From Bryobacteraceae bacterium (GTDB lineage: Bacteria > Acidobacteriota > Terriglobia > Bryobacterales > Bryobacteraceae): a stretch of DNA of 57,467 nt. The DNA lies in contig JASHQT010000024.1 in assembly GCA_030039005.1 (NCBI GenBank), forward strand, positions 1 to 57,467. Reading direction: 5' to 3'. The notes under the pieces were generated by a model. That model saw only the letters and a list, made by a program, of their open reading frames with translations, ran no database searches and was not told the DNA's origin. Shown in pieces: positions 6,320 to 56,199 of this stretch. The position numbers and the translations under genes were made by a program. The number at the start of each line of letters is the position of its first letter. The first letter of the stretch is position 1.

Positions 6320-7114
6320 ATGCCCGACCTCACTGTTCTGATTCCCGTCCTGATCGTCGTGATATACGTGCTCTCGTCGATCAAAATTCTGGCCGAATAC
6401 GAACGCGGCGTGATTTTTCGGCTGGGCCGCGTGCTCGCGCAGCCCAAGGGCCCGGGCGTCATCCTGGTATTCGCGCCCATCGACCGCATGGTGCGCATGT
6501 CGCTGCGCATCGAGGCCATGCCGGTTCCGGCGCAGGACGTGGTCACGCGCGACAACGTCACGGTAAAGGTGGACGCGGTCGTCTACTTCCGCGTGGTGGA
6601 ACCCATCAAGGCGGTCCTCGAAGTCGCGAACTTTCTCTACGCCACGTCGCAAGTCGCGCAAACCACGCTGCGCAGCACGCTCGGTGAAGTGGAACTGGAT
6701 GAATTGCTCAGCCAGCGCGAGAAACTCAATCTGCGTTTGCAATCCGTTCTCGATACCCACACCGGACCCTGGGGCGTGAAAGTCACCGTAGTCGAAGTCA
6801 AGCAGGTGGACCTGCCCGAGCAAATGATCCGCGCCATCGGCCGCCAGGCCGAGGCCGAGCGCGAGCGGCGCGCCAAGATTATTCACGCCGATGGCGAATA
6901 TCTGGCGGCCGAGAAACTGAGTATGGCCGCCGAACAGATCCAGCGCCAACCCGTCGCCATCCAGCTTCGCTACCTGCAGACGCTGGTCGAAATCGGCTCG
7001 GAAAAGAACACGACGGTTGTTTTTCCGCTGCCCATCGATATATTCTCATCTTTAGGAAGAGCACTGGATCGCTTGGCTGGGAAGGAAGCGACGGGGGAGA
7101 AACAGGAAGGGTGA
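6320..7114 (+). CDS. SPFH/Band 7 stomatin-like protein (slipin)
   Basis: Membrane-anchored scaffold protein of the stomatin/prohibitin (SPFH) superfamily, 264 residues, normal for bacterial slipins. One N-terminal membrane segment (residues 4-20, [17 protein letters not shown]) is followed by the Band 7 domain (about 25-185; [53 protein letters not shown]) and a helical, Ala/Glu-rich oligomerisation tail. Family members organise membrane microdomains and interact with membrane proteases. It is the first gene of a plus-strand run with a SPOR protein and lnt, six bases before the next start, fitting an envelope role. No NfeD partner is present next to it. Confidence 0.92.
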
Positions 7115-13796: not shown

Positions 13797-15845
13797 AAAC
13801 ACGCCCGAAATCTTTAGTAAAAAGCCGGCGTATGACCCGCTCAACACAGGCTCCAACGCATCGCCGGCCGGAAAATTGCTCGACGATGTTAAGCCGGCGG
13901 CGTAAAAGCTGCTTCCTGCCCCAAGCGCTCCGGCGTAGGCGCGATCATCGCCAGTCCCGCCAAGATAACTGGAGAAAATGAGAGTTTTTGCTTCCGGATC
14001 CAGGACGCTCGCGAAAGCATCGAAGTAGCCTTGAAACTGCGGGTCCGGAGCGTTTTCTTGGGGAAAATTCACCGAAGACGTAAAGCCAGCCAGAAATACT
14101 CTTCCCGAATTGTCGAGGGCAATCGAGGTGGCCGTATCGGAACCTGAACCGCCCAAGAAAGTGGAATAGACCAGGCTCACTCCGCCTGGGGCCAGCTTGG
14201 AGACGAACGCGTTGTAAATACCTCCTAAACTAGCCTGGAAAACACCTGGCGTTGTGGGAAAGTCCGGAGATGCTGTCGCACCGGCAACGTAGGTGTTACC
14301 GGAGCTGTCTACCGCGATGGCGTACCCTTGGTCGAGATTCGTCCCGCCAAGAAATGTGGAATACACCAACGCGGATCCGGTTGGATTGATTTCCGAAACA
14401 AAAGCGCTGGCGGTTCCGCCGAGGCTTTGCAACGCTCCCAGGGTCGGGAAGTTCGCCGAGTAAGTCGTGCCCGTGACATAGGCATCGCCCGCCGAGTCGA
14501 CGGCGACCGCGCTGCAGGCGTCCAGGCCCGAGCCTCCCAGGAAGGTGGAATACACCAGCGCGCTCCCCGACGCGTTCAGCTTGGAAACGAAACAGTCGGA
14601 AACGCCTCCCTCATAGGCTGGCTGCAACGCACCAGGCGTCACCGGAAATAATGGAGATTCGGTCTCGCCGGCGACAAACGCCTCTCCGGCCGAATCGATT
14701 GCGATCGCATCACCAAAGTCGGCTGTCGCGCCGCCGAGATACGTCGAGTATTGCAATGCACCCAGAGGGCTTACTTTTGCGACAAAAGCATTCTGGGGTC
14801 CGGGAGCGATCGTGGAGAAGGATCCGGCCGTGACCGGAAAGTCGGGCGAAGACGTAATGCCGGCGACGTATGCATTTCCGGAGGAGTCCACGGCTATGGA
14901 TTTAGCGGTATCGCTCCCACTGCCGCCCAGATAGAGCGTGTATAGGACCTGAGTTGCCGCGCCATTCAATTTCACGAGGAAAGCATTACTACTGGAGCGC
15001 ACCGGCCCAGCGCCGTTCCACAGGCTCAGGGAACTGGTCTGGCCAGCGATGTACAGATTGCCGGAGCCATCGGTTGCCATGGCGTAGATCGCGCTGAATC
15101 CCGGTCCTCCGATAAAGGTGGTAAAGGACAGGACCGGATCGATGGTCAGGGGAGCGCTACGATCGTAAGGCCCTGTCTTCAGCCGCAACTCTTGCGGACC
15201 GGCCAGTACATAGCTGCACGCAACGGAATGCCGCCCTCCGGCGATTTGAAAAGCATTCGGATTCGATTGCAGGATCTTGAAGCCAGATCTGTAAACCGTT
15301 ACCTCGCCCGAGCGGTCCAAGGAAAATGTCGCGCCCTCGAAGCGCATGCGAATTGCACCCGGGTCGGCGCCCGGGGACACCTCGAAGCTGTATTCCAGAT
15401 GGCCCGAATTCGACGCGAATATGAGATCAATGCCCGGATAGATGGCCCGGTAGCGTACCTGGGCGAAATGCGAATCCACTCGCCATTTCAACGGTTTTCC
15501 CCAATAGAAAAGAGTCCTGCGCGGGACCTGCGCTTCGCCCACCGGCTCTGCCCGCGGATTGGCGCCCGGAATGGTCATCCGAAGGGTTACGCCATCGGCG
15601 CAATGGAGCGCGACAATGGCGCCTGCGGTCAACGTGGCGGTCACACCCGGGGTTTCCCAACTGTATTGCCTCCTCCCGGAATCGCAGCAGCGCTCTTCGA
15701 AACTGGGCGAGATAGCAACTCCGGCCCGTTGCAGAACCGGCGCAATCGATGCTCCTTGCGCGAGGCCCATGATCGCGATTGCGGCCAAGGGGCATACGCT
15801 CCCAAGGCGGAATGTTCGGCTGATCGAGCATCTGGGGAACGGCAC
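12447..15845 (-). CDS. secreted SBBP-repeat protein with three discoidin-like domains
   Basis: Predicted surface or extracellular adhesin-like protein, 1132 residues. A signal-like hydrophobic stretch (about residues 15-32) follows a GTG start that lacks a good ribosome site, so the exact start is uncertain. Residues about 40-240 are the N-terminal beta domain that commonly precedes SBBP repeats (YPGIDLIFASNSGHLEYSFEV). Residues about 245-680 hold about eight SBBP repeats (STFLGGSGLDACSAVAVDSA style). Residues 684-1132 are three consecutive 150-residue F5/8 type C (discoidin, galactose-binding-like) domains, each with NAWWEVDLG or NAWWQVDLG and WNRTDCCGSRL, the Cys-Cys pair conserved in all three. 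These domains usually bind carbohydrate. It is divergent from the glycan operon, suggesting it could recognise surface polysaccharide. Confidence 0.88.
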   Translation of the reverse strand: MPFPRCSISRTFRLGSVCPLAAIAIMGLAQGASIAPVLQRAGVAISPSFEERCCDSGRRQYSWETPGVTATLTAGAIVALHCADGVTLRMTIPGANPRAEPVGEAQVPRRTLFYWGKPLKWRVDSHFAQVRYRAIYPGIDLIFASNSGHLEYSFEVSPGADPGAIRMRFEGATFSLDRSGEVTVYRSGFKILQSNPNAFQIAGGRHSVACSYVLAGPQELRLKTGPYDRSAPLTIDPVLSFTTFIGGPGFSAIYAMATDGSGNLYIAGQTSSLSLWNGAGPVRSSSNAFLVKLNGAATQVLYTLYLGGSGSDTAKSIAVDSSGNAYVAGITSSPDFPVTAGSFSTIAPGPQNAFVAKVSPLGALQYSTYLGGATADFGDAIAIDSAGEAFVAGETESPLFPVTPGALQPAYEGGVSDCFVSKLNASGSALVYSTFLGGSGLDACSAVAVDSAGDAYVTGTTYSANFPTLGALQSLGGTASAFVSEINPTGSALVYSTFLGGTNLDQGYAIAVDSSGNTYVAGATASPDFPTTPGVFQASLGGIYNAFVSKLAPGGVSLVYSTFLGGSGSDTATSIALDNSGRVFLAGFTSSVNFPQENAPDPQFQGYFDAFASVLDPEAKTLIFSSYLGGTGDDRAYAGALGAGSSFYAAGLTSSSNFPAGDALEPVLSGSYAGFLLKISGVFDLALNQPATQSSTYAPGFSNASDAVDGNTNGSYSDGSVSTTGDDQNAWWEVDLGNTFALTSITIWNRTDCCGSRLSDYWVFVSNTPFATTDTPTTLQGRAGVFSSYQTTAPNSSSNIIIPGAQGRFVRIQLSATNYLSLAEVQVYGSAVQDLALHQPATQSSTYAPGFSNASNAVDGDTDGTYSDGSVTTTLDDTNAWWQVDLGTSPSISEIVIWNRTDCCGSRLTDYWVFVSDIPFAATDTPATLQNRADTFSSYQTAQPNPASSIVIPGAKGRYVRVQLAGTNYLSLAEVQVYGTAPVDLALNQPATQSSTLVPGFSNASDAVDGDTDGSYYDGSLSTTMDNPNAWWEVDLGASFPIGPIVVWNRTDCCGSRLTDYWVFVSNTPFAATDTPSTLQNESGVFSSYQTLAPDPSATIIIPGAQGRYVRVQLAGTNYLSLAEVQVFSHYP

Positions 15846-43017: not shown

Positions 43018-46000
43018 TTGCAGGAAACCGTGAGTTTTGAGAACGGCGCCAGGACACAGCGTCCCGGGTTGGGCGAACGGCTGGAGCGCGCCCGTTTACT
43101 CGCGGCCCTCGAGCAGGCCGCCGATGCGGTGGTCATGACGGACGCCGCCGGAAAGATCGAGTACGTGAATCCGGCATTTACGGCGATGACCGGATATATC
43201 CGCGAAGAAGCGGTGGGCGAGTATCCGCGCATCCTCAAGTCCGGCCGCCAGACGCAAGAGTTTTACCGCGAACTCTGGGCCACGATTACGTCGGGGCGCG
43301 TCTGGCACGGCGAAATGATCAACCGCCGCAAGGACGGAAGTCTCTATACCGAAGAAATGCAGATCACGCCGGTGGAAGCGGGCGGCGAGATCGCGGGCTT
43401 CATCGCCTTCAAGCGCGACGTGACCGAGCGGCGCGCGGCGGAGGAAGCGCAGCACTTTTTGGCGGCCATCGTGGAGTGCTCCGAGGACGCCATCATCGGA
43501 CAGGACCTGGAGGGAAACATCCTTACGTGGAATCCCGCGGCGGAAACGCTTTTCCACTACACGGCGCGCGAGGCGATCGGGAAGCATGTGTCGATGCTGG
43601 TGGCCGCCGAGCGGCGCGACGAAGTGGCCCAACTGAGACAACAAGTGCTGGAAGGTCGTTCCGTCCCCCAGCACGCCTGCCTTTGCTTGCGCCAGGACGG
43701 CAGCCGGTTTGATGGCTCGGTCACCATGTTTGGGATCCGCAACTCCGCCGGTGCGGTTACGGCGACCTCCTGTATCGTTCGCGATGTGACCCGCGAACGG
43801 GAAGCCGAACAGGCCAGAGCTCTGCTTGCCTCCATCGTGGAATATTCCGAAGACGCGATTAACGCCGTCGATCGGAACGGAACCATCCTCACTTGGAACC
43901 GGGCCGCCGAGAAGCTCCTGGGCTATTCGGCCCAGGAAATGATCGGGCAAAACGCGGCCGTCCTCGGGCCCAACGGCACCGAGGAAGTGCGGCGCTGCCT
44001 GGAGATTGTCGGCCAAGGGCAGCGCGTCGCTCCTTTCGACACCGTTAGCCAAGCCAAGAACGGACAGCTTATCGACGTCTCTGTGGCCGTGTCGCCCATT
44101 CGGAATCCGGCGGGCGAGGTGGTGGGCGCTTCAGCGATCGTCCGCGACATCGGACCGCGCTTGATCGTTCAGCGCAGATTGCAGGAGAGCGAGGCGTTGT
44201 TCCGCGAAATCTTCGCGCACGCGCCCTTCGGGATGTGCGTGGGCGGTCTGGATGGCAGCTTCCTGCAAGTGAACGCTCCGCTGTGCCAGATGCTCGGGTA
44301 TTCTGAAGCGGAGCTTCTGGGACGGAACGCGAGCGACATATCGCACCCGGACGACATCGAAAGTACCCTCGCGCGCTTGGACGAGCTGCGGCGCGATCCG
44401 AGCCAGTGCCTGGAGGCCGAGAAACGCTACATTCACCGGGACGGAGGCGAGGTCTGGGCGCGCATCAGGTTATCGCCGGTGAAAGATGCGAGCGGGGCGG
44501 CGTTATATGTTGTGGTCCACATGGAGGACATCTCCGGGCGCAAGCGCACCGAGGAGGCGCTGCGGGAAAGTGAGCAGCGCTTCCGCAACATCGCCGACTG
44601 CTCGCCCACCATGCTGTGGTTCACCGATGCCGAGGGCGGCATCCAGTTTGCGAACCGGATGATGCTCGAGTTCGCCGGCACTTCGCTCGATCAATCGCAA
44701 GGCAGCGGCTGGCGAATGTTCTTGCATCCCGATGACGCGCCGCCGTACCTGGAAGTTTTTGAGCGCGCGGTGCGCGAACGGGCTGCGTTCCGTGCCGAAG
44801 TGCGGGTCCGGCGGGCCGACGGCGAGTGGCGCTGGTTCGGCTCCTACGCGACGCCGCGCTTTTCGCCGGGCGGAGAATTCCTGGGACATGTCGGGCTGAG
44901 CTCGGACATCACCGAGCGCTTGAAAGCCGAGCAGGCGCTGCGCTCAAGCGAAGAGAAATTCCGGCAGTTGGCCGAAAACATTCGCGAAGTTTTCTGGATG
45001 ATACCGTCTTCGGGCGAGGAAATGCTGTACGTCAGCCCGGCCTACGAACAGGTTTGGGAGCAAAGCTGCGAAAGCTTGTACCAGAATCCGCAGGCGTGGT
45101 TCGAAGCCATCCATCCGGAAGACCGCGAAGCCGCGCACCGAGCCATGGTCCGGCAGATGCAAGGCGATCCGGTGGAGTATATCTTTCGCATCCAGACCCC
45201 CTCGGGCCGGGAGAAATGGATTCGGGACCGCGCTTTTCCCATCCGGGATCACAGCGGCCAGATCATTCGGGTCGCGGGGCTCGCCGAAGAGATCACCGAG
45301 CACAAACGGCACGAAGCGGAGCTGATTCAAGCGCGCGAGGATGCTGACGCCGCCAATCGCGCCAAGAGCCGCTTCCTGGCCAACATGAGCCATGAAATCC
45401 GCACGCCCATGAACGGCGTGATCGGCATGATCCAGCTCTTGTTGGACACCCAGCTTTCGGCCGAACAGCGGCAATACGTGAGCGTGGCTCACGACAGCGC
45501 GCGCGTTCTGCTGGCACTCATCGATGACATTCTCGATCTATCCAAGATTGAGGCCGGCAAGATTGTTCTGGAACATTTGAGCTTTTCGTTGCGCGAGGTG
45601 GTGGACGCGGTGGTGCAGGTGCTGCGCATGCAGGCCAAGGCCAAGGGGCTGAAGTTCAGCGCGTGCGTCGCGGCGGCCATTCCACCGCTGGTGACGGGCG
45701 ACGCGCATCGCCTGCGCCAGGTGCTGACCAATCTGGCGGCCAATGCCATCAAGTTCACCGAATGCGGGGAGGTGACTCTGGTGGCCACGCTCGATAGCCT
45801 CGGCGCGGGACGGGCGAGCGTCCATTTCGCCATCAGCGATACGGGGATCGGCATACGGCCGGAGCAGGTCGCGCGATTGTTTTCCGCCTTCACGCAGGCC
45901 GACGCGTCCACCACGCGAAAATACGGCGGTACCGGCCTCGGACTGGCGATTTCCAAGCAACTGGTGGAAATGATGGGAGGCACGATCGGCGCTGAAAGCG

Positions 46001-46875
46001 TCGAAGGCGATGGGTCGCGGTTCTGGTTCACGGCCGTGTTCGAGGTTCCGGCCGAAACTCGCGTCCCCGCGGTGTCGACTGGGCAGAGCGGCTCATTTTC
46101 TTCCGCCGAGCCAAGGTTGGAGCAGCGGCGCTGCTCCTGCATCCTAGTGGCGGAGGACAACGCCATCAACCGGGACGTGGCTCTGGCGCAATTGGAAAAG
46201 TTGGGCCTGCGCGCCGAGGCGGTGGTCAATGGCGCCGAAGCTGTGGCAGCGGTGCGGCGCGGCGGCTACGACCTGGTGCTCATGGATTGCGAGATGCCGG
46301 GGATGGACGGCTATGAGGCTACGCGCACGATCCGCCATTCGTTCGGTTCCCGCATCCCCATCATCGCCGTCACCGCCGACGCCATGCCGGCCGATCGCGA
46401 GCGCTGCCTGAAGGAGGGAATGAACGACTATATCGCCAAACCGGTGGACGTGGCCGAGCTCAAGACCCTGCTCGCGAAATGGCTGCCGTCGGCCGAGCCG
46501 GGCGAGGTGGCCGCGAAAAGCGTCTTCCATGCGGATGCCATGCTGCGGAGATTGATGGGGGACCGCCAGTTGGCCTCGACCGTGGTGAACAGGTTTATCG
46601 AGGACGTCCCCGCTCAGTTGGACACACTCCGCGAGCGGCTGGAACAGGCCGATGCCGAGGGGACACGGCGTCAAGCCCACACGCTGAAAGGAGCGGCGGC
46701 GACGGCGGCGGCCGGGGATTTGCGGGACATCGCGCTGGCGATCGAAAGCGCCGCCCGGGCCGGGAAGCTCGGCGAGTGCGGTGCATTGGTGCGCGCCGCC
46801 GCGGAGGAATTCGAGCGTTTTATGCGCGCCGTGGCCCGGGAAGGATGGACGGCGAATGATCAATCTGGAAAATGA
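43018..46875 (+). CDS. six-PAS hybrid histidine kinase with receiver and Hpt domains
   Basis: 1285-residue hybrid kinase; TTG start at 43018 preceded by GAGGGTGG (a GTG at 43030 is possible). No membrane spans, so it is cytoplasmic. Six consecutive PAS/PAC units occupy about residues 25-770 (for example [38 protein letters not shown]). HisKA has the phospho-acceptor His792 in SHEIRTP; the ATPase domain (about 895-1015) has DTGIGI and [12 protein letters not shown]. The receiver accepts phosphate on Asp1090 ([11 protein letters not shown]), and the Hpt domain carries His1221 (QAHTLKGAA). All phosphorelay residues are intact. It overlaps the next gene by 20 bases. Signal unknown; the PAS array suggests several redox, light or ligand inputs. 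Confidence 0.93.
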
Positions 46876-47689
46876 ATTGGCGGAAGATTACCTGGCGGAG
46901 TGCCGCGAGCATCTCGTCCGCATCGAGGCGGATCTACTGGCGATGCAGAACGCCGCGCCGGATCAATGCCTGGAGGCCGCCGATCGCGCCTACCGGGCGC
47001 TGCATTGGGTGCAGGGAGGGGCCAGCGTGTTCGATCTGCCCAAGATCGGCGCGCTGGCGCGCCAGATGGAACATGTCTTGGGGCTCATCCGGGCGCGGAA
47101 ACTCTCGGTGAATCAGGAGCGCTTCCACGTTTTGCTCAATGCGGCGGACCGGCTGCGCGAATTGGTGGACGATCCATGCGCGAGTAACCAGGCCGACACC
47201 GCCGCGATCATGGCGGCCTTGATGATGTTCGATGAGAACCGCGCCAAACGGCGTCCGTGGGATGCGAACGCCGCGCGGCCCGGCGCGCATCGCCTGCGCA
47301 TGCTGCTGGTGGAAGACGATTTCGCCAGCCGTATTCTGCTGCAAACGTTTCTCTCCAATTACGGGGAGTGTCACGTCGCGGTAAACGGAAGAGAGGCTGT
47401 CGAGATCTTTCGCTACGGGTTGGAGCGGGGCCAGAGATACGACTTGATTGCGATGGACATCATGATGCCGGAAATGGACGGCCGGGAGGCCGTGCGGCAC
47501 ATTCGGGCACTGGAAGAGGAGCACGGCATCCCGTCCACGTCCGGCGCCAAGATCGTCATGACCACGGCCGTGGACGACGTCAAAGAAGTCATCCGCTGCT
47601 TCCACGAACTGTGCGATTCCTACCTTGTCAAACCCATCGATCTGGCCAAATTGCTGGACCAGATGCGGGCCTATCAGTTGATTGAGTAG
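46856..47689 (+). CDS. Hpt-receiver response regulator without DNA-binding domain
   Basis: 277 residues from an ATG that lies inside the end of the kinase gene. An N-terminal Hpt-like helical bundle (about 1-115) has RALHWVQGGASVFDL, where His50 matches the phospho-His of HTLKG but the Lys is Gln. The C-terminal receiver (about 147-277) has the acidic pair VEDDFAS, phospho-acceptor Asp201 in AMDIMMPEMDG, the Thr in MTTAV and the Lys in YLVKPID. With no output domain it probably shuttles phosphate or acts by protein contact. The upstream kinase already has its own receiver and Hpt, so the relay may branch here. Confidence 0.88.
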   Translation: MINLENELAEDYLAECREHLVRIEADLLAMQNAAPDQCLEAADRAYRALHWVQGGASVFDLPKIGALARQMEHVLGLIRARKLSVNQERFHVLLNAADRLRELVDDPCASNQADTAAIMAALMMFDENRAKRRPWDANAARPGAHRLRMLLVEDDFASRILLQTFLSNYGECHVAVNGREAVEIFRYGLERGQRYDLIAMDIMMPEMDGREAVRHIRALEEEHGIPSTSGAKIVMTTAVDDVKEVIRCFHELCDSYLVKPIDLAKLLDQMRAYQLIE

Positions 47690-47735: not shown

Positions 47736-48383
47736 TCACTTCGGCTCTTGAATATCCAGATCGGTCTTCTCGTCGCCCGCCATCATTTTCGCGCTGTCGT
47801 AGAATCCCGCGGTGACCAGATGAATCTGGACTTCCTTCTTGCCCTTGTTCTCCCAGAACCAGCCGTGGATGCCGGTGCTCGGAGCGGTGAACGATCCGAA
47901 GGAGCGGTCCGAGCCGGGCTGATCGTTCAGTTCGTAGCTTTCAAAGTAGTCCTTGTTCGGCTTGTTGTCAGGCTCGCCATGGAACTCATACGCCACGATT
48001 CCCGTGGCCTTCCACGCATAAGTCATTCCAGCGCCTTTCTGCATGTGATACTTGATCTCGACGCCCTCGCCGGGCATGAGCGAAAGATCTTCGCTGTCGG
48101 TTTTGTACGTGCCTGGTTGCGCGGTGTAAATTCCGGCAGGTGCGGCAACGGGACGAGCGCCCACAACGGGCTTCGGTTCCGCCTTCGACCCGGTGGCCTT
48201 CGCCAAATCGGTCAAATGCAGTGCCTTGCCGGTCCCGAGCGGATCGATTCCGTACTCGGCCGGCAGGACCGCGGTAAAGAGAATCACGAGCGCGACAGCA
48301 AAGGCGATGCCGGTCGCCATGGCAATCGCCTGCTTCGATGGCGCCGCTGGTTGTTGCGTTCCTGGTTGTTCCACCATAGGCAT
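47736..48383 (-). CDS. membrane-anchored periplasmic protein paired with HupE/UreJ
   Basis: 215 residues with one N-terminal membrane span (about 20-42, AIAMATGIAFAVALVILF) and a soluble periplasmic domain (about 90-205) rich in aromatic residues and His: LSLMPGEGVEIKYHMQ, TGIVAYEFHGEP, GIHGWFWENKGK. I recognise it as the protein usually annotated as transmembrane anchor protein beside HupE/UreJ-type permeases in other bacteria. Its beta-rich domain could bind a metal or cofactor, but no proven ligand is known to me. It is the last gene of a five-gene minus-strand run, six bases after the HupE-like gene. Confidence 0.8.
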   Translation of the reverse strand: MPMVEQPGTQQPAAPSKQAIAMATGIAFAVALVILFTAVLPAEYGIDPLGTGKALHLTDLAKATGSKAEPKPVVGARPVAAPAGIYTAQPGTYKTDSEDLSLMPGEGVEIKYHMQKGAGMTYAWKATGIVAYEFHGEPDNKPNKDYFESYELNDQPGSDRSFGSFTAPSTGIHGWFWENKGKKEVQIHLVTAGFYDSAKMMAGDEKTDLDIQEPK

Positions 48384-48389
48384 CTTTCC

Positions 48390-49100
48390 TTAAGCGGCCG
48401 CGACAAAATATCCGGCCACTTGATAACCCACTAAAATGAACCCTACCGTCATGAGCACCGCGTTGGTGGCGAAAGCGTCCCGCAAGAAACTCGGGCGCGT
48501 CCGCCAGACGCTGAGCGCGATCAGAACGGCGGTCAGCGCCAGCACCTGCCCCACTTCCACGCCGACGTTGAAGCTCACGATGTTGGTCACTAGCCCGTTC
48601 TTCGAAAGGGCCAGCTCCTGCAGCTTGGTCGCGAGGCCAAATCCGTGAAACAGGCCGAAGATCAGGACGGCAACTTTTGTATTCGGCTCGAAGCCCAGGA
48701 ATCGACGGAACCCGTCCATATTGTCGAACGCTTTGTAGACCACCGAGAATCCAATGATTGCGTCAATCACGTAGGGATTGGCGTGAACTCCTCCGAGCAC
48801 TCCGCCCAGCAACGTGATGCTGTGCCCCAGCGTGAATAGACTCACGTATTGCACGATGTCTTTCAGCTTGTAAAGGAAAAAGATCACGCCCACCAGGAAG
48901 GCAATGTGATCGTATCCGGTGACCATATGTTTGGCGCCCAGGTAAATGAACGCTGGGATCGCCGCGCCCTGGTTCGATTCGACAAATGAGGCGTCGCGTT
49001 TGGAGACGTTGTGCGCCATGGCGGCGCCTGGAAATAGGAGCATGGTTAGGAAGAAGAGAATCGCCACGAGGGCGGCGGCGCGCCGGTATGAAATCGTCAT
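48390..49100 (-). CDS. HupE/UreJ-family membrane protein, possible metal permease
   Basis: 236 residues. A cleavable-looking signal (about 10-29, ending AMAHN) precedes a hydrophobic core with about six spans. Conserved His residues sit in the spans: KHMVTGYDHIAFL, FTLGHSITL and FGLFHGFGLATKL. HupE/UreJ relatives are associated with nickel or cobalt uptake for hydrogenase and urease; this second subfamily (HupE_UreJ_2) is not near either enzyme here. Together with the anchor protein it likely forms a transporter or membrane complex. Ribosome site GGAGGG precedes the ATG by nine bases. Six-base gaps on both sides indicate one operon. Confidence 0.85.
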   Translation of the reverse strand: MTISYRRAAALVAILFFLTMLLFPGAAMAHNVSKRDASFVESNQGAAIPAFIYLGAKHMVTGYDHIAFLVGVIFFLYKLKDIVQYVSLFTLGHSITLLGGVLGGVHANPYVIDAIIGFSVVYKAFDNMDGFRRFLGFEPNTKVAVLIFGLFHGFGLATKLQELALSKNGLVTNIVSFNVGVEVGQVLALTAVLIALSVWRTRPSFLRDAFATNAVLMTVGFILVGYQVAGYFVAAA

Positions 49101-49106
49101 TGCTTA

Positions 49107-49592
49107 TTAGCCCTCCCAGTAGGCAATCATCCTTCCCATGGTAAACATCGCAGTCCACAGAACGATCGAAAGAATCGCGGCGACTTTGACCTTGGCCGGG
49201 ATGACCGGGGATTTATCCAGCTCCTCCGCATTGTTGTAAATACTGGAGCGAAAGACAAAACCGTGTATGAAAATCAAGGCCAGGATGGTCATTTTGGCCC
49301 AGAAGTAGGGGTTGGGAGCGTATTTAGTCGCTTCCGAGGTCGCCAGCAGCAGTCCCGTACAGACCATGATGGTTCCGCCCAGGCGTTTCCACGGGCGGAG
49401 GTTGGTGATGATCTCGGTGATCGTCACTTGCTTAAACGTCAGCCCGAGAAGGCGCAAATTCGTCATCAGGATCGCGCCGCCGAACAGCGCGATGCAGGTC
49501 AGATGGGTCGAGAGCACGATTGGGTACACCAGCACGGAATCGGCGAAGTCATTGAGGAAGCCGATGTTCTCGAGTGATTGAGCGATGGACAC
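49107..49592 (-). CDS. small four-helix membrane protein A (DUF6644-like)
   Basis: 161 residues, GTG start. Four predicted spans: about 18-42 (VYPIVLSTHLTCIALFGGAI), 66-88, 97-117 and 132-155. The first span contains His and LRLLGLTF and the third ends in IHGFVF, a pattern of intramembrane His shared with its neighbour at 49605-50054. The placement is suggestive of b-type haem or metal ligation, which is inference. Function unknown; the DUF6644 name is tentative. Twelve bases downstream of its relative. Confidence 0.75.
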   Translation of the reverse strand: MSIAQSLENIGFLNDFADSVLVYPIVLSTHLTCIALFGGAILMTNLRLLGLTFKQVTITEIITNLRPWKRLGGTIMVCTGLLLATSEATKYAPNPYFWAKMTILALIFIHGFVFRSSIYNNAEELDKSPVIPAKVKVAAILSIVLWTAMFTMGRMIAYWEG

Positions 49593-49604
49593 TTGAGGAT
49601 CGTC

Positions 49605-50054
49605 CTATTCGAGGAATCCAGTAAAAATCCCACCGAACACAATTAACGCCCAGAGCAGGAGCGATACGATCGCCACCAGCTTGCTCAGCCGCGGCGGCGG
49701 GTTCTCCATTAGGGCCACTTTTCTGTGGAGCGTGAAATTATAAATGACGGCCGCGGCCAGAAGATACATCTTGATGGGGAAGATCGGATTGATCAGATAA
49801 ATGCCCACCTGCGATAGAAACAGCGCCCCACCCGAAAATAAGATAAACACCAGCGCGATGATCGTCCACAGCTCCGTGTACCTCAGAATCCGTGCGGGAG
49901 TTTCACGCCGCAGCCCGAGGTCCAGCATTCGAAAGTCCACCAGCGCGATCGATCCCACGCCAACCGCCATAGCGCCGATGTGAACGCACTCCGCCAACGG
50001 AAATGCCCATTCGGTATCGTTGAGCGCATCCACCAGTGTGTTCTGGAGAAGCAT
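49605..50054 (-). CDS. small four-helix membrane protein B (DUF6644-like)
   Basis: 149 residues, ATG start, no clear ribosome site. Four spans; the first has ECVHIGAMAVGVGSIALVDFRMLDLGL and the third ends YNFTLHRKV (these lines up with the paralogous His positions of gene A). The two small proteins therefore look like a heterodimeric pair. It follows the c-type cytochrome gene by 45 bases, so an electron-transfer partner role is plausible. I do not recognise a named function; the family placement is tentative. Confidence 0.75.
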   Translation of the reverse strand: MLLQNTLVDALNDTEWAFPLAECVHIGAMAVGVGSIALVDFRMLDLGLRRETPARILRYTELWTIIALVFILFSGGALFLSQVGIYLINPIFPIKMYLLAAAVIYNFTLHRKVALMENPPPRLSKLVAIVSLLLWALIVFGGIFTGFLE

Positions 50055-50099
50055 TGGCTCGCTATCTCTCTTCTTCGCTGGCCCGTTTTCTCAAAAATC

Positions 50100-50654
50100 T
50101 CACTTGCAGCGGTCCTCCAGGCTTGGCTTCTCCCGCCACTTGTCGTGGCAATTCGAGCACGCCGTGCTCAGGTCCCCCGCCGCCGTCACAATGTTGTCCA
50201 TATTTTTGGACTGCGCGGCTTTAAACGTTTCCGCACTCGCTTCCCGCAGGTCTTGCACGAATTTCGGCCAATCCGGATTGTTGACCGGGACCGGAAGCCC
50301 GTTCGCGCATTTGCGCCCTGGAAGGATCAGGAGGTTGGCGGCTTCTCCAAGAGCCTTGGCGCTGTTTTCCACAGCCGTCCAGCCGCCGTAGGTACTGGCG
50401 AGCGGATTCGGCGATAGCGACGGGTCCTTCGCCGGCGGCACCCTGGCAGGATCATCTTCCTGGGCGAAAAAGATCACATTGGAGTTGGGAAAGAGGATGC
50501 CGCGCATGAGTTGGCGGAGGTCGGCTGTGATCTCCGACCTCATGGCCGCCGCTGCCGGAACCTTGGCTGCCTTTGACCCGGCTGGCGCGGGCGGTTGCGC
50601 GTAGCAGCCACCTGCCAGGGCTAGCGCTACGAGAGCGGTCCGAATGCGAAGCAT
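50100..50654 (-). CDS. periplasmic monohaem c-type cytochrome, PNSNVI family (copy 1)
   Basis: 184 residues from the ATG at 50654, preceded by GGAAGGTG; a signal peptide (about 1-19) ends at CYAQP. One haem site, CSNCH, lies near the C-terminus (about residue 168), as in class II-type (cytochrome c'/c-556-like) helical cytochromes. A shared core with the gene at 55735 includes LRQLMRGILFPNSNVIFFAQ, LPVPVNNPDWPKFV and the final DLSTACSNCHDKW. Likely a periplasmic electron carrier for the membrane proteins encoded just downstream. An overlapping longer frame upstream lacks support. Confidence 0.85.
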   Translation of the reverse strand: MLRIRTALVALALAGGCYAQPPAPAGSKAAKVPAAAAMRSEITADLRQLMRGILFPNSNVIFFAQEDDPARVPPAKDPSLSPNPLASTYGGWTAVENSAKALGEAANLLILPGRKCANGLPVPVNNPDWPKFVQDLREASAETFKAAQSKNMDNIVTAAGDLSTACSNCHDKWREKPSLEDRCK

Positions 50655-50952
50655 TGTGGGTTCACCTTCCTGATGAATTCGTTTCGATCTGCCGGTTCGC
50701 GATTCCGAAGGGCTTGAGCGCCTGCCAGAGGGGCGGGCCGGAAAAGGCAAAGAAGTCTTCTCATCCAATGACTTTTCCCGCCCGTGTTCGCAGCTTTTCG
50801 GCTGCGCCTCCGCCTCCGATTGGCTTCCCTGGGCCCCGGAGTCGGTCAAGTACGGGGCCTCTTGTCGAGTTGCCTTGGTTCATGGATGGACAGACCGTTC
50901 GAGCGTATCACCGAGTTACGAAAAATCCACGGGCTTCGTAGTCATCAAGCGG
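50655..50952. other. 298-base spacer upstream of cytochrome copy 1
   Basis: No credible gene is visible on either strand. A short stem (GCAGC/GCTGC around TTTTCG, about 50790-50805) and ordinary G+C-rich sequence are present. The spacer ends at a 14-base palindrome. It is the likely promoter region for the cytochrome-to-anchor operon but has no obvious hexamer pair. Confidence 0.4.
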
Positions 50953-51414
50953 TCAGTGACCGGTCACTTGCTGGGCGTAATCGTGCATCCGGCCGAATTC
51001 ATATTCCAGCCGCGACTTGAGAACCACTTCCCGAGTGCCGTCCGTCGTGCCCACGCCCATGCCGAAGCTCCAGGTCAACCGTTCGCCGATTCTCCAATCC
51101 GCGCCGAGAAACACCAGGTGCGTCTGGTCCGCTAGCGGCGATAACTTGCCGAGTTCGCCGAGCGCAGAATAGTACTCGATGCTGGGAGTCCGCCTTTTCC
51201 ATTGTTGCCAGCCCAGCCTGGCCGACGTCTCGGCGTCCCAGCCGAGCCCGGTCCCCGGCTCATGCAGCGCGCGATCGAAGGCGATATTTCCATCCATCTG
51301 CAAACGGCCAATATGCTTTTCAACGATCGCGCGCAGCTCCACTTGCCGGGTGTTTTGATCGAAGAGCGGCCGCTGCGTCGCGATAATCTTCGGTGGCCAC
51401 GAGCACGAGGAGCG
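50953..51414 (-). pseudogene. remnant of an outer-membrane/transporter-like protein, 5' truncated
   Basis: An open stretch ending at 50953 encodes about 150 residues with no normal start; an in-frame TAG at 51415 bounds it. The body (ELRAIVEKHIGRLQMDGNIA, SARLGWQQWKRRTPSIEYYSA, LTWSFGMGVGTTDGTREV, KSRLEYEFG) matches the C-terminal half of beta-rich proteins of about 250-300 residues that I recall from acidobacteria, where upstream beta strands and a signal peptide are expected. A signal-like run (RPISLRVLALLVLVA) occurs just upstream in another frame. The best reading is deletion plus frameshift leaving a remnant next to the TonB receptor. Confidence 0.6.
50955..50968. promoter_or_regulatory. 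14-bp palindrome AGTGACCGGTCACT (site A)
   Basis: Perfect palindrome at the end of the truncated gene and about 300 bases ahead of the cytochrome start. It shares AGTGACCGG with two other sites in this module (55037-55064 and 55696-55722). A dimeric regulator site is one possibility; the site also forms part of the remnant gene's stop region. Confidence 0.4.
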
Positions 51415-51465
51415 CTAGAACGCGAAGCGAAATGGGCCGAAGAACACGATTCGTGGAATGCCGGG

Positions 51466-54400
51466 TCAAAATAAGAATTTGACCGCACCTTGGACCTCGC
51501 GCGGCGGAGCAGCGTTGACTACTTCACCGAACAAGTTGCTGCTGATATCGCCGTCCACGGCCAAGGGGCCGAAGAAGTTCGCGTGATTAAAAGCATTGAA
51601 CGCTTCCAGCCGGAATTGCAACGTCCTCGATTCCTTGATGGTGAACGTCTTCAGAAGCGCCAGGTCGAAGTTGATCTCGCCAGGGCCGATGAACGAGCGC
51701 CGGCTGGCATCGCCCGCAGTACCCAGGGCATTGAGAGTAAACGCATTGATATTAAAATACGGTTGCCCGTTCCTGCCGGCATTTTTATTGATGTCCAGCG
51801 GCTCGCCGTTGTAATCCGGTAAGTCCAGGCTATAGTTGTTCACGCCGTTGGGATTGCTGCCCTGCAGCGAGTTGTCGCCGTCGGAGTGGAGGCTTACGGG
51901 GAAACCGCTGTTCATCCGCGCGATCCCTGTAAGCTGCCAGCCACTGGTCAGGCCCCGGATATGCGCTATCTTGTCGAACGGAAGATTGTACTGAAAGCTG
52001 ATGACCAGGTTCTGCGGAATGTCGAAGGCCGAAAGGGCACGCGTGGCCTCGAGATCGTATGGATCTCCGGGATCGGAAATGCTGGATGCCTGGTCAATCG
52101 ATTTGCTCCAGGTATATCCGGCCAGAACACTGAAGGCGGGTGTCGTGTACCGGAGGGTAATTTCCAGCGCGTTAAAATTCGCATTGCCGACCGTGGCGTC
52201 GTAATCGTCGTTGCCGTAATCCGGCCCCAGGCCTTGCCGCGTTCCCTGGACCGTCTGGCCGGAGGGTAGAATGTAAGTCGTGTTCTCTCCGAAGGGGCCG
52301 CACGTAGGCGTGGCGCCCTCCCGGTTCAGTTGCAGGCACAACGCCGGATTGCCGGGGTTGGCGGAATACACCAGCAGCAGATGATGCGACTGCGATCCGA
52401 CATAACTGACGCTGAACATCATGTGCTGCCCGAACTGCCGCTGCACCGACAGGAAATAGTTTTCCGTGTAGGGATACGTGTCCCACGGCACGGGAGCCGT
52501 CATGCCTTGTTGCGGAATAAATTGCGAAAAACTCTCCGTGGTGTTCGGATTGTTGATGGACGTATTCACCGACGGGACATTCAACGGAAACGGGTTGCCG
52601 GTGAACGACCCATTGGCGGCCAACATGAGCGGCTGCGCAAACAGCGTCGGACCAGGGCTGGTATAGCTCAATCCATAAGGCGGTTGTGGCTCGTCGACCG
52701 CCATGGTGTTCCCTTCGATCTGGTTGTAGTAAATTCCATAGCCGGCGCGAATACTGCTGTTGCCCGGACCACCCGTAAGTTTTTTGAGCCAGCCGTCGGT
52801 AGCGCCCGGCGAGTAGGCTAAACCGATACGCGGCGAGAAACGATTACTCGAAGGCACCAGCGTGCTGGGTACGCCTTTGTCGCCAACATAGACCAAGCTT
52901 GGGAAAGCTTGCGTATAAACCTGCGATTGCTCTCCAGGAATGAAGGTCGGGATCTGGCGATACTTCTCGGACCAGTAGGCCATCCAGTCCCAGCGAACGC
53001 CGAAGTTGATGGTCAAACTATTGGAGGCACGCCAGCTATCTTGCGCGAAGCCGGCCGCATAGTGATGGCGGAGGTAATAGGCGTTAGAGCTAGCCTGATT
53101 GTACAGGCTGTCGACGCCGATGAAGAAGTCCGCGAAATCGTTGCCTGTTTCCTGGCCGGCAAACGTGAACCCTCCGTTGGCTTCCGGGTTCGGATGCACA
53201 TTCACCTGCTCGTAGCTGCCGTTAAAGCCGAACTTCAGCGTGTGCGTGCCCATCACCTTGGTAAAGATGTCGTTCCAGGCGTAGGTATTGTTGTACTGCG
53301 AGAGGTTGGTGATGGGAACGCCCATCGTGAAGGTGTTGAAGATTACGTTCTCAACGCCTTCATATTGTGGAAGAAGCGGAACGATCCCCGGCGTACCCGC
53401 GCCAGTCTCGAATCCCTGTGAGGCAATGCTCACCCCAAGACCTCCCGACGGCTGGCCTACTACATTGGCATCGCGCATAAAGCTGAGACGGGCTTCGTTG
53501 ACCATAGTTGGCCCGAAAGTCGTGGTATCGGCGAGGCTGGTGAGCTGCGAACGCCCGAAATTCACGCCGGCAAATCCAGGAACCGTTGCCCCGCCCTGGC
53601 CGCTGGGATAGGGGTTGACAAGATGGTAGTCGTCAAAGAAGTCGTAGGCCGAGATCTGACCCCACTTCCCCGCATCGACGTCGAAGCGAGCGCTGCCCTT
53701 GTCATCCCGCAAAATCTCTCCATAAGCACCCGAAGTGTAGGTATCCGGGCCGTCGTTGGGGAGTGGAATGTAGGGGAGCAGATGCGAGACGGGCGCTGCC
53801 CACACCGATTGAGGGATGATTGCGCCAGGAAAGACGCAGGGACTGCAGTTCGGCGTATAGTAGGGTTCGCCGGCCTTAACCGTGTAGCCCAGTTTCTGCG
53901 AAAGCAGGTTGGCGATATACGGTCCGCTAACCGTGCCGGTGAGCGAGCTGGCATCGTCGCTGAAGTTGCCCGTCCGCTCCGCTAGCGTAGGCACTTGAAT
54001 TAAGCCTGTATCTTGCCCCTGAAAGTTTCGCGTCCCCTGATAGTCCAGGAAGAAGAAGACTTTGTTTTTCTTGATGGGCCCGCCCACTGTTCCTCCGAAC
54101 TGATTCTGCCGGTAGATACCGCGCTCGGGCGAGAAGAAGTTGCGCGCGTCCAGATCCGTGTTTCTGAGAAACTCGAACGTGCTGCCGTGAATCTCGTTGG
54201 AGCCCGATTTGGTAACCACATTGACGATGCCGCCGCTATAGTTTCCATACTCGGCGTCGAAGTTGTTCGTCAGCACGCGGAACTCGGCGATCGAATCGAG
54301 GTCCGGAATAATCGCGGTACCCCCATTCATCAGCTCCTTCACATCGCCACCGTTTACCAGAAATCCGTTGGCATCTTCGCGCTGGCCGCTGATCGATTGG

Positions 54401-54981
54401 TTTCCGGCATTTAGGCCGCCGGAAGGCTGGATCTGGACGGACGCGCCGGCCATAACGACCGATTGCGCGGTCTGCGTCGACATCGGCACGATGCCTGGCT
54501 GCAGCGCGAGCAAATCCGTATAGCTGCGGCCATTGAGCGCCACTTGGGTCATTTCTTTCTGGCTGACTACCTCGCCCACCTCCGTACTGCTGGTTTCCAC
54601 GTGGACCTGCTCCGTGCTTTCCGAAACGGTCACTTCCGATTTCTGCTCGGAGAGTTCCAGGCTAAAATCCATCCGGATGGACGCGTCCGTGTCCACTGCG
54701 ATCCCCGATTTCTTTTGCGGGCTGAAGCCTTGCAATTCCACCTGGACATCATAGGTTCCTACGGCAAGGCGGGGGAAGTTATAAAAGCCGCTGGTGTCGG
54801 TGGTAGTTTTGGTCTCGATGCCCTGGGCTGTGTTGGTTGCTGTTACCGTCGCGGCGGCGATCACCGCTCCGGTTGGGTCCGTCACGGTTCCAGAGATGCT
54901 GCCGGTAGTTGCAGCAGATAAGACAAACGGAAGGCATGCCGCGAGGCACAATACAAGCGTCCTAGGTAGGTTGCGAGACAC
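51466..54981 (-). CDS. TonB-dependent receptor, Oar-like, with CarboxypepD-reg N-domain
   Basis: 1171-residue outer-membrane receptor. The GTG at 54981 is forced, since a stop lies four codons upstream. A signal peptide (about 1-23) precedes a carboxypeptidase-regulatory-like domain (about 25-115, SGTVTDPTGAVIAAATVTAT; FYNFPRLAVGTYDVQVELQGF), then the plug (ALNGRSYTDLLALQPGI; FDAEYGNYSGGIVNVVTKSGSN; FGGTVGGPIKKNK). The rest is a 22-strand barrel ending in the aromatic KFLF terminus. Substrate unknown; acidobacterial copies are linked to glycans, siderophores or metals. It is next to the cytochrome/HupE module, which favours a metal chelate. A weak hydrophobic TonB box may lie before the plug. 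Confidence 0.9.
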   Translation of the reverse strand: MSRNLPRTLVLCLAACLPFVLSAATTGSISGTVTDPTGAVIAAATVTATNTAQGIETKTTTDTSGFYNFPRLAVGTYDVQVELQGFSPQKKSGIAVDTDASIRMDFSLELSEQKSEVTVSESTEQVHVETSSTEVGEVVSQKEMTQVALNGRSYTDLLALQPGIVPMSTQTAQSVVMAGASVQIQPSGGLNAGNQSISGQREDANGFLVNGGDVKELMNGGTAIIPDLDSIAEFRVLTNNFDAEYGNYSGGIVNVVTKSGSNEIHGSTFEFLRNTDLDARNFFSPERGIYRQNQFGGTVGGPIKKNKVFFFLDYQGTRNFQGQDTGLIQVPTLAERTGNFSDDASSLTGTVSGPYIANLLSQKLGYTVKAGEPYYTPNCSPCVFPGAIIPQSVWAAPVSHLLPYIPLPNDGPDTYTSGAYGEILRDDKGSARFDVDAGKWGQISAYDFFDDYHLVNPYPSGQGGATVPGFAGVNFGRSQLTSLADTTTFGPTMVNEARLSFMRDANVVGQPSGGLGVSIASQGFETGAGTPGIVPLLPQYEGVENVIFNTFTMGVPITNLSQYNNTYAWNDIFTKVMGTHTLKFGFNGSYEQVNVHPNPEANGGFTFAGQETGNDFADFFIGVDSLYNQASSNAYYLRHHYAAGFAQDSWRASNSLTINFGVRWDWMAYWSEKYRQIPTFIPGEQSQVYTQAFPSLVYVGDKGVPSTLVPSSNRFSPRIGLAYSPGATDGWLKKLTGGPGNSSIRAGYGIYYNQIEGNTMAVDEPQPPYGLSYTSPGPTLFAQPLMLAANGSFTGNPFPLNVPSVNTSINNPNTTESFSQFIPQQGMTAPVPWDTYPYTENYFLSVQRQFGQHMMFSVSYVGSQSHHLLLVYSANPGNPALCLQLNREGATPTCGPFGENTTYILPSGQTVQGTRQGLGPDYGNDDYDATVGNANFNALEITLRYTTPAFSVLAGYTWSKSIDQASSISDPGDPYDLEATRALSAFDIPQNLVISFQYNLPFDKIAHIRGLTSGWQLTGIARMNSGFPVSLHSDGDNSLQGSNPNGVNNYSLDLPDYNGEPLDINKNAGRNGQPYFNINAFTLNALGTAGDASRRSFIGPGEINFDLALLKTFTIKESRTLQFRLEAFNAFNHANFFGPLAVDGDISSNLFGEVVNAAPPREVQGAVKFLF

Positions 54982-55222
54982 GCTAACAGTTTATCGGCGA
55001 ATTTTGCTAAAGCCTTGGCTCGGTGTGTCATTCCGGGGTCACTGACCGGTATGTGACGACCGGCACGCAGCGTGATTGCGGGGCCGCTTTCCGAATACTC
55101 CTATCCGGATCATTAGAAAGTGGGGATTGTTCCAGGCGAGATCTTTGTGATGGTCCCGCCCGCGCGGAAACGCGTAGGGGAGCGGTGGGCCTGGTTTAGC
55201 CCCAAGCGTGGCAACCCTTGCG
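54982..55222. other. 241-base spacer upstream of the TonB receptor
   Basis: No gene is visible. It holds site B of the GACCGG-type motif (55037-55064) and AT-rich DNA just before the receptor GTG (TAACAGTTTATCGG). No convincing promoter hexamers; the receptor may be transcribed from here or from the upstream DUF6152-like gene. Confidence 0.4.
55037..55064. promoter_or_regulatory. GACCGG-type repeat upstream of the TonB receptor (site B)
   Basis: Reads GGTCACTGACCGGT followed by ATGTGACGACCGGC, giving two ACYGACCGG-like cores. It lies 56 bases ahead of the TonB-receptor start. Similar to sites A and C; spacing of the cores is near one helical turn. Confidence 0.4.
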
Positions 55223-55636
55223 CTAGGGTTGAGGCCCTCCATCGTTGGGAGAGCCGACGAATACCCGGCGGCCATTGGCTAAGACTATCTCTCTCGCCGA
55301 CGCCACGTACGCGCCATCTCGAGCGCGGTAACCCACCACCGTGATCCGGTCGCCGATCCGGAACGAAGCCCTGCTCCAACCTTGGCGGCTCAGCGTGTTG
55401 GGTCCCGCGGTCTCGCAGGCCCAGTTGGCCGTTTTTCCGCCCTCGGTCACATCTAAATACAAGTACACGTGCGGGTTCATCCATTCGACTTTGGTCAGCC
55501 GGCCCTGGAGGGTGATCCGCTGGCTCAGGTCGAACTCAGCCCCCACAGAATGATGGGCGTAGGAGGGCGTTTGGGACAGCAGAAGCGCGGCCAGGATTGC
55601 CCAAAACGCGGCGAAGCCGATACTTCTCGATTGCAT
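55223..55636 (-). CDS. DUF6152-like exported protein
   Basis: 137 residues from the ATG at 55636 (a GTG at 55648 is possible). A signal peptide (about 8-27) ends at SYAHHS, and the mature domain starts AHHSVGAEFDLSQRITLQG, then VEWMNPHVYLYLDVTEGGK, the pattern of small periplasmic DUF6152 proteins. One Cys (WACETAG) and several His could bind a ligand. Function unknown. It sits between the cytochrome and the TonB receptor on the same strand, so it probably belongs to this module. Confidence 0.75.
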   Translation of the reverse strand: MQSRSIGFAAFWAILAALLLSQTPSYAHHSVGAEFDLSQRITLQGRLTKVEWMNPHVYLYLDVTEGGKTANWACETAGPNTLSRQGWSRASFRIGDRITVVGYRARDGAYVASAREIVLANGRRVFVGSPNDGGPQP

Positions 55637-55695
55637 TTTCGCCTGCACTCAGCCTTTAAGGGCAGCCTAGCACGATTAGCGGGGGGCGGCCAGCG

Positions 55696-55722
55696 GCGAC
55701 CGGTCACTCGCCGGTTACTGAC
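55696..55722. promoter_or_regulatory. GACCGG-type repeat upstream of the DUF6152-like gene (site C)
   Basis: On the minus strand it reads GTCAGTAACCGG-CGAGTGACCGGTCGC in two halves: two AGTRACCGG cores with an 11-base period. It lies about 60 bases ahead of the DUF6152-like start and just after the cytochrome stop. Direct repeats at helical spacing are typical of response-regulator sites. Confidence 0.4.
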
Positions 55723-55734
55723 ATTTGCCGGCTG

Positions 55735-56199
55735 TCATTTCTGCGCTTGATCGCGAAAAACCTTGTGGCAGTTGTCGCAGGCTTGAGTCAGGCTGTCGGT
55801 GCAGTTCATGACCGCGTCCTTACTTTTCTTCAGCGCGGCCACCAGGCAGTCCTTGCCGGCGGGCGCGAGCGCCTTGGCGAACTTCGCGTACTCGGCGTTC
55901 TGAACCGGGACGGGCTGGCCGTTGGATTCGATCCGGCCGGAGATCATGACCAGGTTATAGCTCTCCTCGATCGCGACGGAGGCATTCACCACGTTTTGCC
56001 ACTCGGACTCGTCCTTGGGAGGATTCTGCTGCAGCCCCAGGATTACATTGGAATTCGGCAGCAGGATGCTGTGCATCACCTGTTTCAGGTTGCCGTAGGG
56101 CGTGGGCGAGAACGGCGGGGCCTGGCAAATGGCGGCGCCCACGAGCAAGAATAGAGCAAGCACGAATAGAAGGAACGGCCGCGTTTTTTCGAGCACCAA
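55735..56199 (-). CDS. periplasmic monohaem c-type cytochrome, PNSNVI family (copy 2)
   Basis: 154 residues; TTG at 56199 or GTG at 56196 as start (uncertain). An N-terminal hydrophobic signal (about 8-26, FLLFVLALFLLVGAAI) is followed by QAPPF. The single haem site CDNCH lies near the end (about residue 143). It is paralogous to the cytochrome at 50100: LKQVMHSILLPNSNVILGLQ, GQPVPVQNAEYAKFAKAL and SLTQACDNCH align. Likely periplasmic electron carrier; the head of the module on this strand. 51 bases separate it from the divergent SnoaL-like gene. Confidence 0.82.
   Translation of the reverse strand: MVLEKTRPFLLFVLALFLLVGAAICQAPPFSPTPYGNLKQVMHSILLPNSNVILGLQQNPPKDESEWQNVVNASVAIEESYNLVMISGRIESNGQPVPVQNAEYAKFAKALAPAGKDCLVAALKKSKDAVMNCTDSLTQACDNCHKVFRDQAQK

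What the first reader, a model, noticed from the sequence alone, without database searches (positions are those of the whole stretch)
47736..56199. Candidate new envelope redox/metal module: paired cytochromes, HupE/UreJ-like permease, two small His-bearing membrane proteins, TonB receptor
All genes lie on one strand: cytochrome copy 2, DUF6152-like protein, TonB receptor, a remnant gene, cytochrome copy 1, two paralogous four-helix membrane proteins, HupE/UreJ-like permease and anchor protein; the last five form a tight operon (gaps of 45, 12, 6 and 6 bases). Family knowledge: TonB receptors import chelates, HupE/UreJ relatives move nickel or cobalt, monohaem cytochromes carry electrons. Inference: uptake of a metal chelate coupled to periplasmic redox. 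No urease or hydrogenase is nearby.
Basis: partly seen in the sequence, partly recalled or inferred. Interest (0 to 1): 0.7.

Follow-up and report, generated by a model that had tools for sequence, protein, structure and literature searches.

The report
Two-part metal permease with cytochrome partners
A soil bacterium carries an operon for a probable metal-uptake channel whose capture domain, a fold best known from human transport receptors, is made by a separate gene, next to a small electron-transfer unit; some other bacteria weld these same parts into single proteins, so they probably work together.

The parts
47736..48383 (-). Anchor gene (ANCH): one N-terminal membrane helix (model residues 17-44) and an outer GOLD-like beta domain (92-195) with invariant His135 and His173
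48390..49100 (-). HupE_UreJ_2 permease: signal peptide, then His30 as predicted mature N-terminus, about six hydrophobic segments, HX5DH motif (H58...D64-H65)
   Evidence: Pfam 182.9 bits; conservation; His after signal peptide in 75 of 77 rows, the 2 others truncated; hydropathy, segments grouped by eye
49011..49013 (-). Codon of His30, the predicted N-terminal residue after signal-peptide cleavage (...GAAMA|HNVSK)
   Evidence: sequence; alignment
49107..49592 (-). DUF6644 paralogue B, four long membrane helices, invariant His30 and Lys100
   Evidence: Pfam 63.5 bits; A4 alignment of 30 rows; model pLDDT 90.8
49605..50054 (-). DUF6644 paralogue A
   Evidence: Pfam 39.6 bits; alignments
50100..50654 (-). 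Cytochrome c copy 1 (CxxCH near the C-terminus, invariant Met near the N-terminus), first gene of the tight operon; ORF opens at 50849, probable ATG at 50654
50949..50963 (.). Palindrome GGTCA-N-TGACC (exact part 50951-50961), candidate shared operator about 290 bases upstream of the probable start of the operon; overlaps the stop codon of the small ORF
50953..51342 (-).
   Evidence: no Pfam, no tblastn match in 92 loci
51466..54981 (-). TonB-dependent-receptor-like outer-membrane protein (CarboxypepD_reg + OMP_b-brl_4)
   Evidence: a homologue in the corresponding place in L001
55035..55049 (.). Palindrome GGTCA-N-TGACC, about 54 bases upstream of the receptor start
55223..55648 (-). DUF6152 protein
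   Evidence: Pfam 102.9 bits; a DUF6152 gene lies within 3 kb of the anchor gene in 38 of 81 loci, but 6.8 kb away in the window
55700..55723 (.). Degenerate copies of the palindrome upstream of DUF6152
   Evidence: 2 mismatches each
55735..56199 (-). Cytochrome c copy 2, 34% identical to copy 1

Best explanation
The operon encodes an inner-membrane transition-metal capture-and-uptake unit with a redox partner. The permease (HupE_UreJ_2) and the anchor form one transporter: the anchor holds a GOLD-like outer domain beside the permease, and its two invariant histidines together with the permease's N-terminal histidine bind the metal and hand it to the HX5DH site in the membrane. It works like an 'anglerase' permease, but the capture domain is of another kind and is supplied in trans (or fused at the other end). 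The cytochrome c and the DUF6644 pair form a membrane electron-transfer unit that probably changes the redox state of the metal or links its supply to respiration. The metal is most likely copper. Shown here: families, adjacency, fusions, invariant residues, predicted folds. Inferred: metal binding, copper, direction (uptake), electron transfer, TonB involvement.
For: Permease directly 5' of the anchor gene in 69 of 81 loci, with 5 more separated by one small gene. In whole genomes, 7 of 7 anchor-bearing genomes in the family of L001's genome have the permease beside it (three of these are the genomes of L001, L002 and L009), and 18 of 20 in the class of L067's genome (titled Gammaproteobacteria) have it beside or in the same frame. 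11 distinct permease-GOLD fusions in 10 genomes. N-terminal His in 75 of 77 permeases, the trait by which the Cu-binding anglerases were found (Kd Cu2+ 74 and 62 nM; PMC12537917). GOLD fold by model. Copper-type context: YcnI/DUF1775-like genes, whose family has a solved Cu(II) mono-histidine brace (PMC8424229), within 1.5 kb in 7 of 81 loci (one, L056, confirmed by Pfam); heavy-metal RND pumps within 5 kb in 11 of 81, 9 of 9 scanned over the CusA/CzcA cut-off. Redox half: 23 of 23 genomes with a strong cytochrome match have DUF6644, one protein fuses DUF6644-DUF6644-cytochrome; a cytochrome of this family directly 5' of the permease in 39 of 81 loci.
Confidence: 0.55

Rival explanations
1. 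The same permease-GOLD unit imports nickel or cobalt, as characterised HupE proteins do; the cytochrome and DUF6644 genes are there for another reason.
For: HupE/UreJ permeases are described as nickel permeases (PMC12537917); HX5DH is present; Ang-1 also binds Ni2+ (220 nM).
Against: No urease or hydrogenase listed for the 40 window ORFs scanned; neighbours elsewhere include YcnI/DUF1775 and CusA/CzcA.
Confidence: 0.2
2. The unit detoxifies: it withdraws or exports metal from the periplasm together with RND pumps and is not an uptake system.
For: RND heavy-metal pumps within 5 kb in 11 of 81 loci; DUF3240, DUF2946-like and DUF6488 genes around fused forms and a cation-efflux gene in L180.
Against: HupE relatives are importers by published genetics (cited in PMC12537917, the cited work not read here); 70 of 81 loci show no RND pump within 5 kb in the sequence held (some are short contigs).
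Confidence: 0.15
3. Two unrelated modules (permease-anchor; cytochrome-DUF6644) lie side by side by chance in this lineage and do not cooperate.
For: Most loci have one without the other; in 6 of 7 anchor-bearing genomes of the family of L001's genome no DUF6644 lies within 10 kb of the full-length anchor gene.
Confidence: 0.25

Closest known systems
Anglerase-HupE/UreJ-2 permeases (Ang-1, Ang-2; PDB 9GCE; PMC12537917)
   Same: Same permease family PF13795; histidine exposed as the mature N-terminus; an outer beta-sandwich partner domain; proposed capture-and-feed mechanism
   Different: Here no N-terminal domain (27 residues from the N-terminal His to the KH of HX5DH); the beta domain is GOLD-like, carried by a separate membrane-tethered gene or fused at the C-terminus; far from long-N-terminus permeases in the tree
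Eukaryotic p24/TMED, Sec14-like and ACBD3 GOLD domains; putative GOLD domain of Oca2 (PMC10372470, passages)
   Different: Bacterial; membrane helix comes before the domain; invariant His pair; no sequence match in the PDB search
CopC-CopD / YcnJ-YcnI copper sets (PMC8424229, passages)
   Same: N-terminal-His copper proteins next to a multi-helix membrane protein; YcnI-like genes neighbour this module in 7 of 81 loci; DUF6644 shows weak similarity to CopD and HemJ profiles
   Different: Permease is of HupE type; no CopC seen; a c-type cytochrome is part of the set
HupE of hydrogenase clusters (PF04955)
   Same: HX5DH-type permease (recalled)
   Different: No hydrogenase or urease found beside it; separate Pfam family
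Class II cytochromes c (c', c-556; PF01322)
   Same: C-terminal CxxCH; invariant Met near the N-terminus that could be the second axial ligand (analogy recalled)
   Different: Scores under the Pfam cut-off; tied to DUF6644 pairs

Membership tests
HupE_UreJ_2 permease (PF13795) | Score over the curated cut-off | tested here: met
   182.9 bits against 24.5
HupE_UreJ_2 permease (PF13795) | HX5DH metal motif | tested here: met
   H58, D64, H65 each at 99% of 77 rows; that this motif is the metal site in HupE is recalled
HupE_UreJ_2 permease (PF13795) | Transports a transition metal | not testable with these tools
   needs an uptake assay
Anglerase-type permease | Histidine at the mature N-terminus | tested here: met
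   75 of 77 rows, 2 truncated; 68 with a small-x-small motif before it; cleavage judged by alignment, not by a predictor
Anglerase-type permease | Fused N-terminal Ang-1 or Ang-2 domain | tested here: not met
   no room for it in the window protein
Anglerase-type permease | Cu2+ binding at nanomolar affinity | not testable with these tools
   published for one Ang-1 and one Ang-2 protein
GOLD domain fold | Beta-sandwich superposing on solved GOLD domains | tested here: met
GOLD domain fold | Detectable sequence relation to known GOLD domains | tested here: inconclusive
   profile search of PDB sequences gave no GOLD match
CopD / HemJ superfamily (for DUF6644) | Profile similarity | tested here: inconclusive
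   CopD model rings on two DUF6644 ORFs at E 4e-4, below its cut-off; hhalign to HemJ probability 67%, to two CopD-like proteins 6.9%, to the anchor as control 0.3%
Class II cytochrome c (PF01322) | Score over the curated cut-off | tested here: not met
   25.7 and 16.9 bits against 26.5
Class II cytochrome c (PF01322) | C-terminal CxxCH haem motif | tested here: met
   C, C and H at 100% of 44 rows
TonB-dependent receptor | Outer-membrane barrel with CarboxypepD_reg | tested here: met
   OMP_b-brl_4 594 bits, CarboxypepD_reg 77.8 bits
TonB-dependent receptor | Substrate is a metal chelate | not testable with these tools
   no substrate-specific NCBIfam model passes its cut-off

The most novel reading that the evidence does not exclude
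A reductive copper importer: Cu(II) is fished by a membrane-tethered GOLD domain and the permease's N-terminal histidine, reduced by electrons that a DUF6644 pair and a class-II-like cytochrome c bring to the outer face, and released as Cu(I) into the permease; both halves are seen fused in nature (permease-GOLD; DUF6644-DUF6644-cytochrome). GOLD-like domains would then have a bacterial branch whose job is metal delivery.
Probability: 0.25. Interest if true: 0.8.

Novelty: new variant of a known kind. Interest (0 to 1): 0.6.

Why it matters
How bacteria bring copper or nickel across the inner membrane is still poorly known. The anglerase idea (2025) rests on permeases with one kind of fused domain; here a separate branch of the same family has its own capture domain, split off or fused at the other end, and, in some genomes, a redox unit beside it. 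That gives three families without a known function (the anchor, DUF6644 and the cytochrome) a common, testable role, and names a bacterial GOLD-like domain with invariant histidines.
Full report
WHAT IS THERE. The window is a metagenome contig of an acidobacterium; its nearest named relatives are Bryobacteraceae/Bryobacterales, and no whole genome is held for it. On the minus strand, in order of transcription, lie cytochrome copy 2, DUF6152, a TonB-type receptor, a small unidentified ORF, cytochrome copy 1, DUF6644 A, DUF6644 B, a HupE_UreJ_2 permease and the 'anchor' gene. Gaps in the last five are 45, 12, 6 and 6 bases.

PERMEASE AND ANCHOR. With the window that makes 81 loci. A permease of the same family lies directly 5' of the anchor gene in 69 of 81 (a looser rule, either order within 600 bases, gave 74 of 81). 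Of the other 12, L020, L025, L044 and L073 have a small DUF5666-like gene between the two, L019 has a YcnI-like gene between them, L017 and L067 are adjacent but were missed because of an over-long ORF and a cut contig, L016 has the permease convergent 200 bases away, L011 is cut by the contig end, and L014, L018 and L056 show none. The set was drawn by anchor similarity and holds many related marine Gammaproteobacteria, so these fractions are not independent events.

THE N-TERMINAL HISTIDINE. In 75 of 77 permease rows a histidine stands right after the signal peptide, 68 of them with a small-x-small motif before it; the two others are truncated. In the window it is His30 (...GAAMA|HNVSK). H58, D64 and H65 (HX5DH) and G92-H93-S94 are at 99%, H152 and E182 at 100%. 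This is the trait by which Cairo and colleagues found the anglerases, HupE/UreJ-2 permeases with a fused N-terminal beta-sandwich that binds Cu2+ (Kd 74 nM for Ang-1, 62 nM for Ang-2) and, for Ang-1, Ni2+ (220 nM) (PMC12537917: abstract, whole section 8, data section and passages seen). The window permease has no such domain.

FUSIONS. In 274 genomes of the class of L067's genome (titled Gammaproteobacteria) drawn by the tool, the anchor profile matches in 20 and PF13795 in 79. Of 23 anchor matches, 9 have the permease next door, 11 lie in the same reading frame as the permease, and 3 (two pieces in G242, one in G207) have none. The 11 fused proteins (ORFs of 371-424 aa, from 10 genomes; loci L129-L138 and L142) have the permease first and the GOLD domain last, and 11 of 11 keep the N-terminal His. 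By eye the hydropathy windows give six membrane segments after the signal peptide (the paper counts eight helices in its model); with an even number the permease's C-terminus is outside, where the GOLD domain of the anchor would also be, so topology agrees. In 121 genomes of the family of L001's genome the anchor is in 7 and PF13795 in 72; all 7 have the two side by side. Three of the 7 are the genomes of loci L001, L002 and L009 and so are not new evidence. An eighth, weak anchor match (G001:C92) stands without a permease.

TWO KINDS OF PARTNER. I inspected the 50 loci that searches returned for PF13795 (20 and 30, the best-scoring of all matches, so not a random sample; 2.2 to 3.5 kb each). 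None of the 19 with a long N-terminal domain (at least 141 residues before the permease) has an anchor gene or GOLD domain; 23 of the 31 others do (7 of 7; 16 of 24). Of the 8 without, L165 is cut by the contig end; of the 7 left, L145, L151, L158 and L159 were checked and have a secreted His-rich DUF6488 gene beside them, L160 has a weak DUF6488 match at its own C-terminus (E 0.004), and L152 and L153 were not checked. That the long ones are anglerases is presumed from architecture; of three checked, one matches the solved Ang-1 by sequence. In a tree of 82 permease domains the split type is one group (98/100), the fused type and six of the DUF6488-type or unchecked short ones form its neighbour (99/98), L145 falls outside both, and the long-N-terminus type lies across a long branch (100/100); the bootstrap had not settled and the tool warns of long branches. 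GOLD was perhaps lost in the short forms nested among the fused ones (inference).

THE REDOX HALF. In the same 121 genomes DUF6644 is found in 33 (141 matches, 123 of them with another within 300 bases, hence pairs). The cytochrome profile matches in 33 genomes (61 matches; in many genomes only 30 candidates were scored, so this is a lower bound); I kept the 45 matches with E under 1e-19, in 23 genomes, and dropped 16 weak ones. All 23 genomes have DUF6644; 17 of the 45 lie within 5 kb of a DUF6644 and 13 within 1 kb. In genome G134 one 428-aa frame holds DUF6644, DUF6644 and cytochrome in a row (HMM E 5e-40, 3e-34, 4e-24); this is a single case. In the 81 loci a cytochrome of this family lies directly 5' of the permease in 39, and L001 has a broken one at that place. 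DUF6644 lies within 8 kb of the anchor in 6 of 81: window, L001, L027, L056, L060, L067. All 7 anchor-bearing genomes have DUF6644, against 26 of 114 others (Fisher p 7e-5, not corrected for kinship). Equal contig lengths suggest that DUF6644 B relatives sit with the anchor on four other metagenomic contigs and with the permease on two; these contigs were not read. DUF6644 resembles HemJ (hhalign 67%) and faintly CopD, which would fit haem or copper, but this is inconclusive.

WHICH METAL. YcnI-like genes lie within 1.5 kb of the anchor in 7 of 81 loci and heavy-metal RND pumps within 5 kb in 11 of 81; one YcnI (L056) was confirmed as DUF1775 by Pfam, and 9 of the 11 pumps were scanned, 9 of 9 passing the CusA/CzcA cut-off. 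YcnI binds Cu(II) through a mono-histidine brace (PMC8424229, passages). With the published copper preference of anglerases this favours copper; nickel is not excluded.

A SHARED PALINDROME. GGTCA-N-TGACC occurs exactly twice in the 57-kb window, at 50951 (about 290 bases before the probable start of the operon) and 55037 (before the receptor), where 0.07 are expected from base composition; degenerate copies stand before DUF6152. In the 20.6 kb held of L001 it also occurs exactly twice, before DUF6152 and at 1457, which is before the DUF6644 run if its first gene starts later than the longest ORF. Exact copies occur once each in 11 other loci as well; of the 15 copies in the 81 loci, 4 lie within 200 bases upstream of a DUF6152 ORF (L001, L048, L065, L072), where by my arithmetic about 0.1 would fall by chance; the last three are related marine bacteria. 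The other six family-level loci have none. This hints at a regulator shared by DUF6152 and its neighbours; none was identified.

VERDICT. A real, composite membrane operon: a GOLD-partnered HupE permease with a cytochrome-DUF6644 unit. The partnership inside each half is well supported by adjacency and fusions (my estimate 0.9 for permease-anchor, 0.85 for cytochrome-DUF6644); cooperation of the halves 0.6; copper 0.55; uptake rather than efflux 0.65; TonB receptor as part of the pathway 0.3.

Noticed in passing
window 50949-50963, 55035-55049, 55700-55723; L001 1457 and 4717; L048 11253; L065 11313; L072 11303: Palindrome GGTCA-N-TGACC before the receptor, DUF6152 and the operon, and upstream of DUF6152 in L001 and three marine relatives; candidate operator of an unknown regulator. 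Single copies elsewhere (other loci) are unexplained.
   Followed up: partly
L177-L183 (fused permease-GOLD loci): A small DUF3240/P-II-like gene stands just upstream and a His-rich DUF6488 gene just downstream of several fused permeases, with DUF2946-like genes further up (Pfam checked in L177, L178 and L181 only): a set of small metal-handling candidates.
   Followed up: partly
marine gammaproteobacterial loci such as L042, L043, L065: Cytochrome-permease-anchor faces a divergent DUF6152 gene and a family of about 320 aa without Pfam ('PDLQGFW'), near DUF6351, GMC oxidoreductase and gluconate-dehydrogenase subunit 3 genes, in nearly fixed order.
   Followed up: no
L208, L209, L210: In other genomes of the family of L001's genome the permease-anchor pair lies near genes that look like glycolate oxidase or molybdenum-hydroxylase subunits (judged by eye from ORF starts).
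   Followed up: no
L001 8891-9278: The cytochrome directly before the permease is split across two frames in this relative.
   Followed up: partly
L175 3324-3776: An orphan, divergent GOLD-like ORF in G001 lies beside a cytochrome and a DUF6152 gene but no permease.
   Followed up: no
window 43018-47689: A large multi-PAS hybrid histidine kinase and an Hpt/receiver protein lie convergent to the operon.
   Followed up: no
window 12447-15845 and 3031-6561: Two long proteins with beta-propeller (SBBP) repeats, one also with F5/8-type domains.
   Followed up: no
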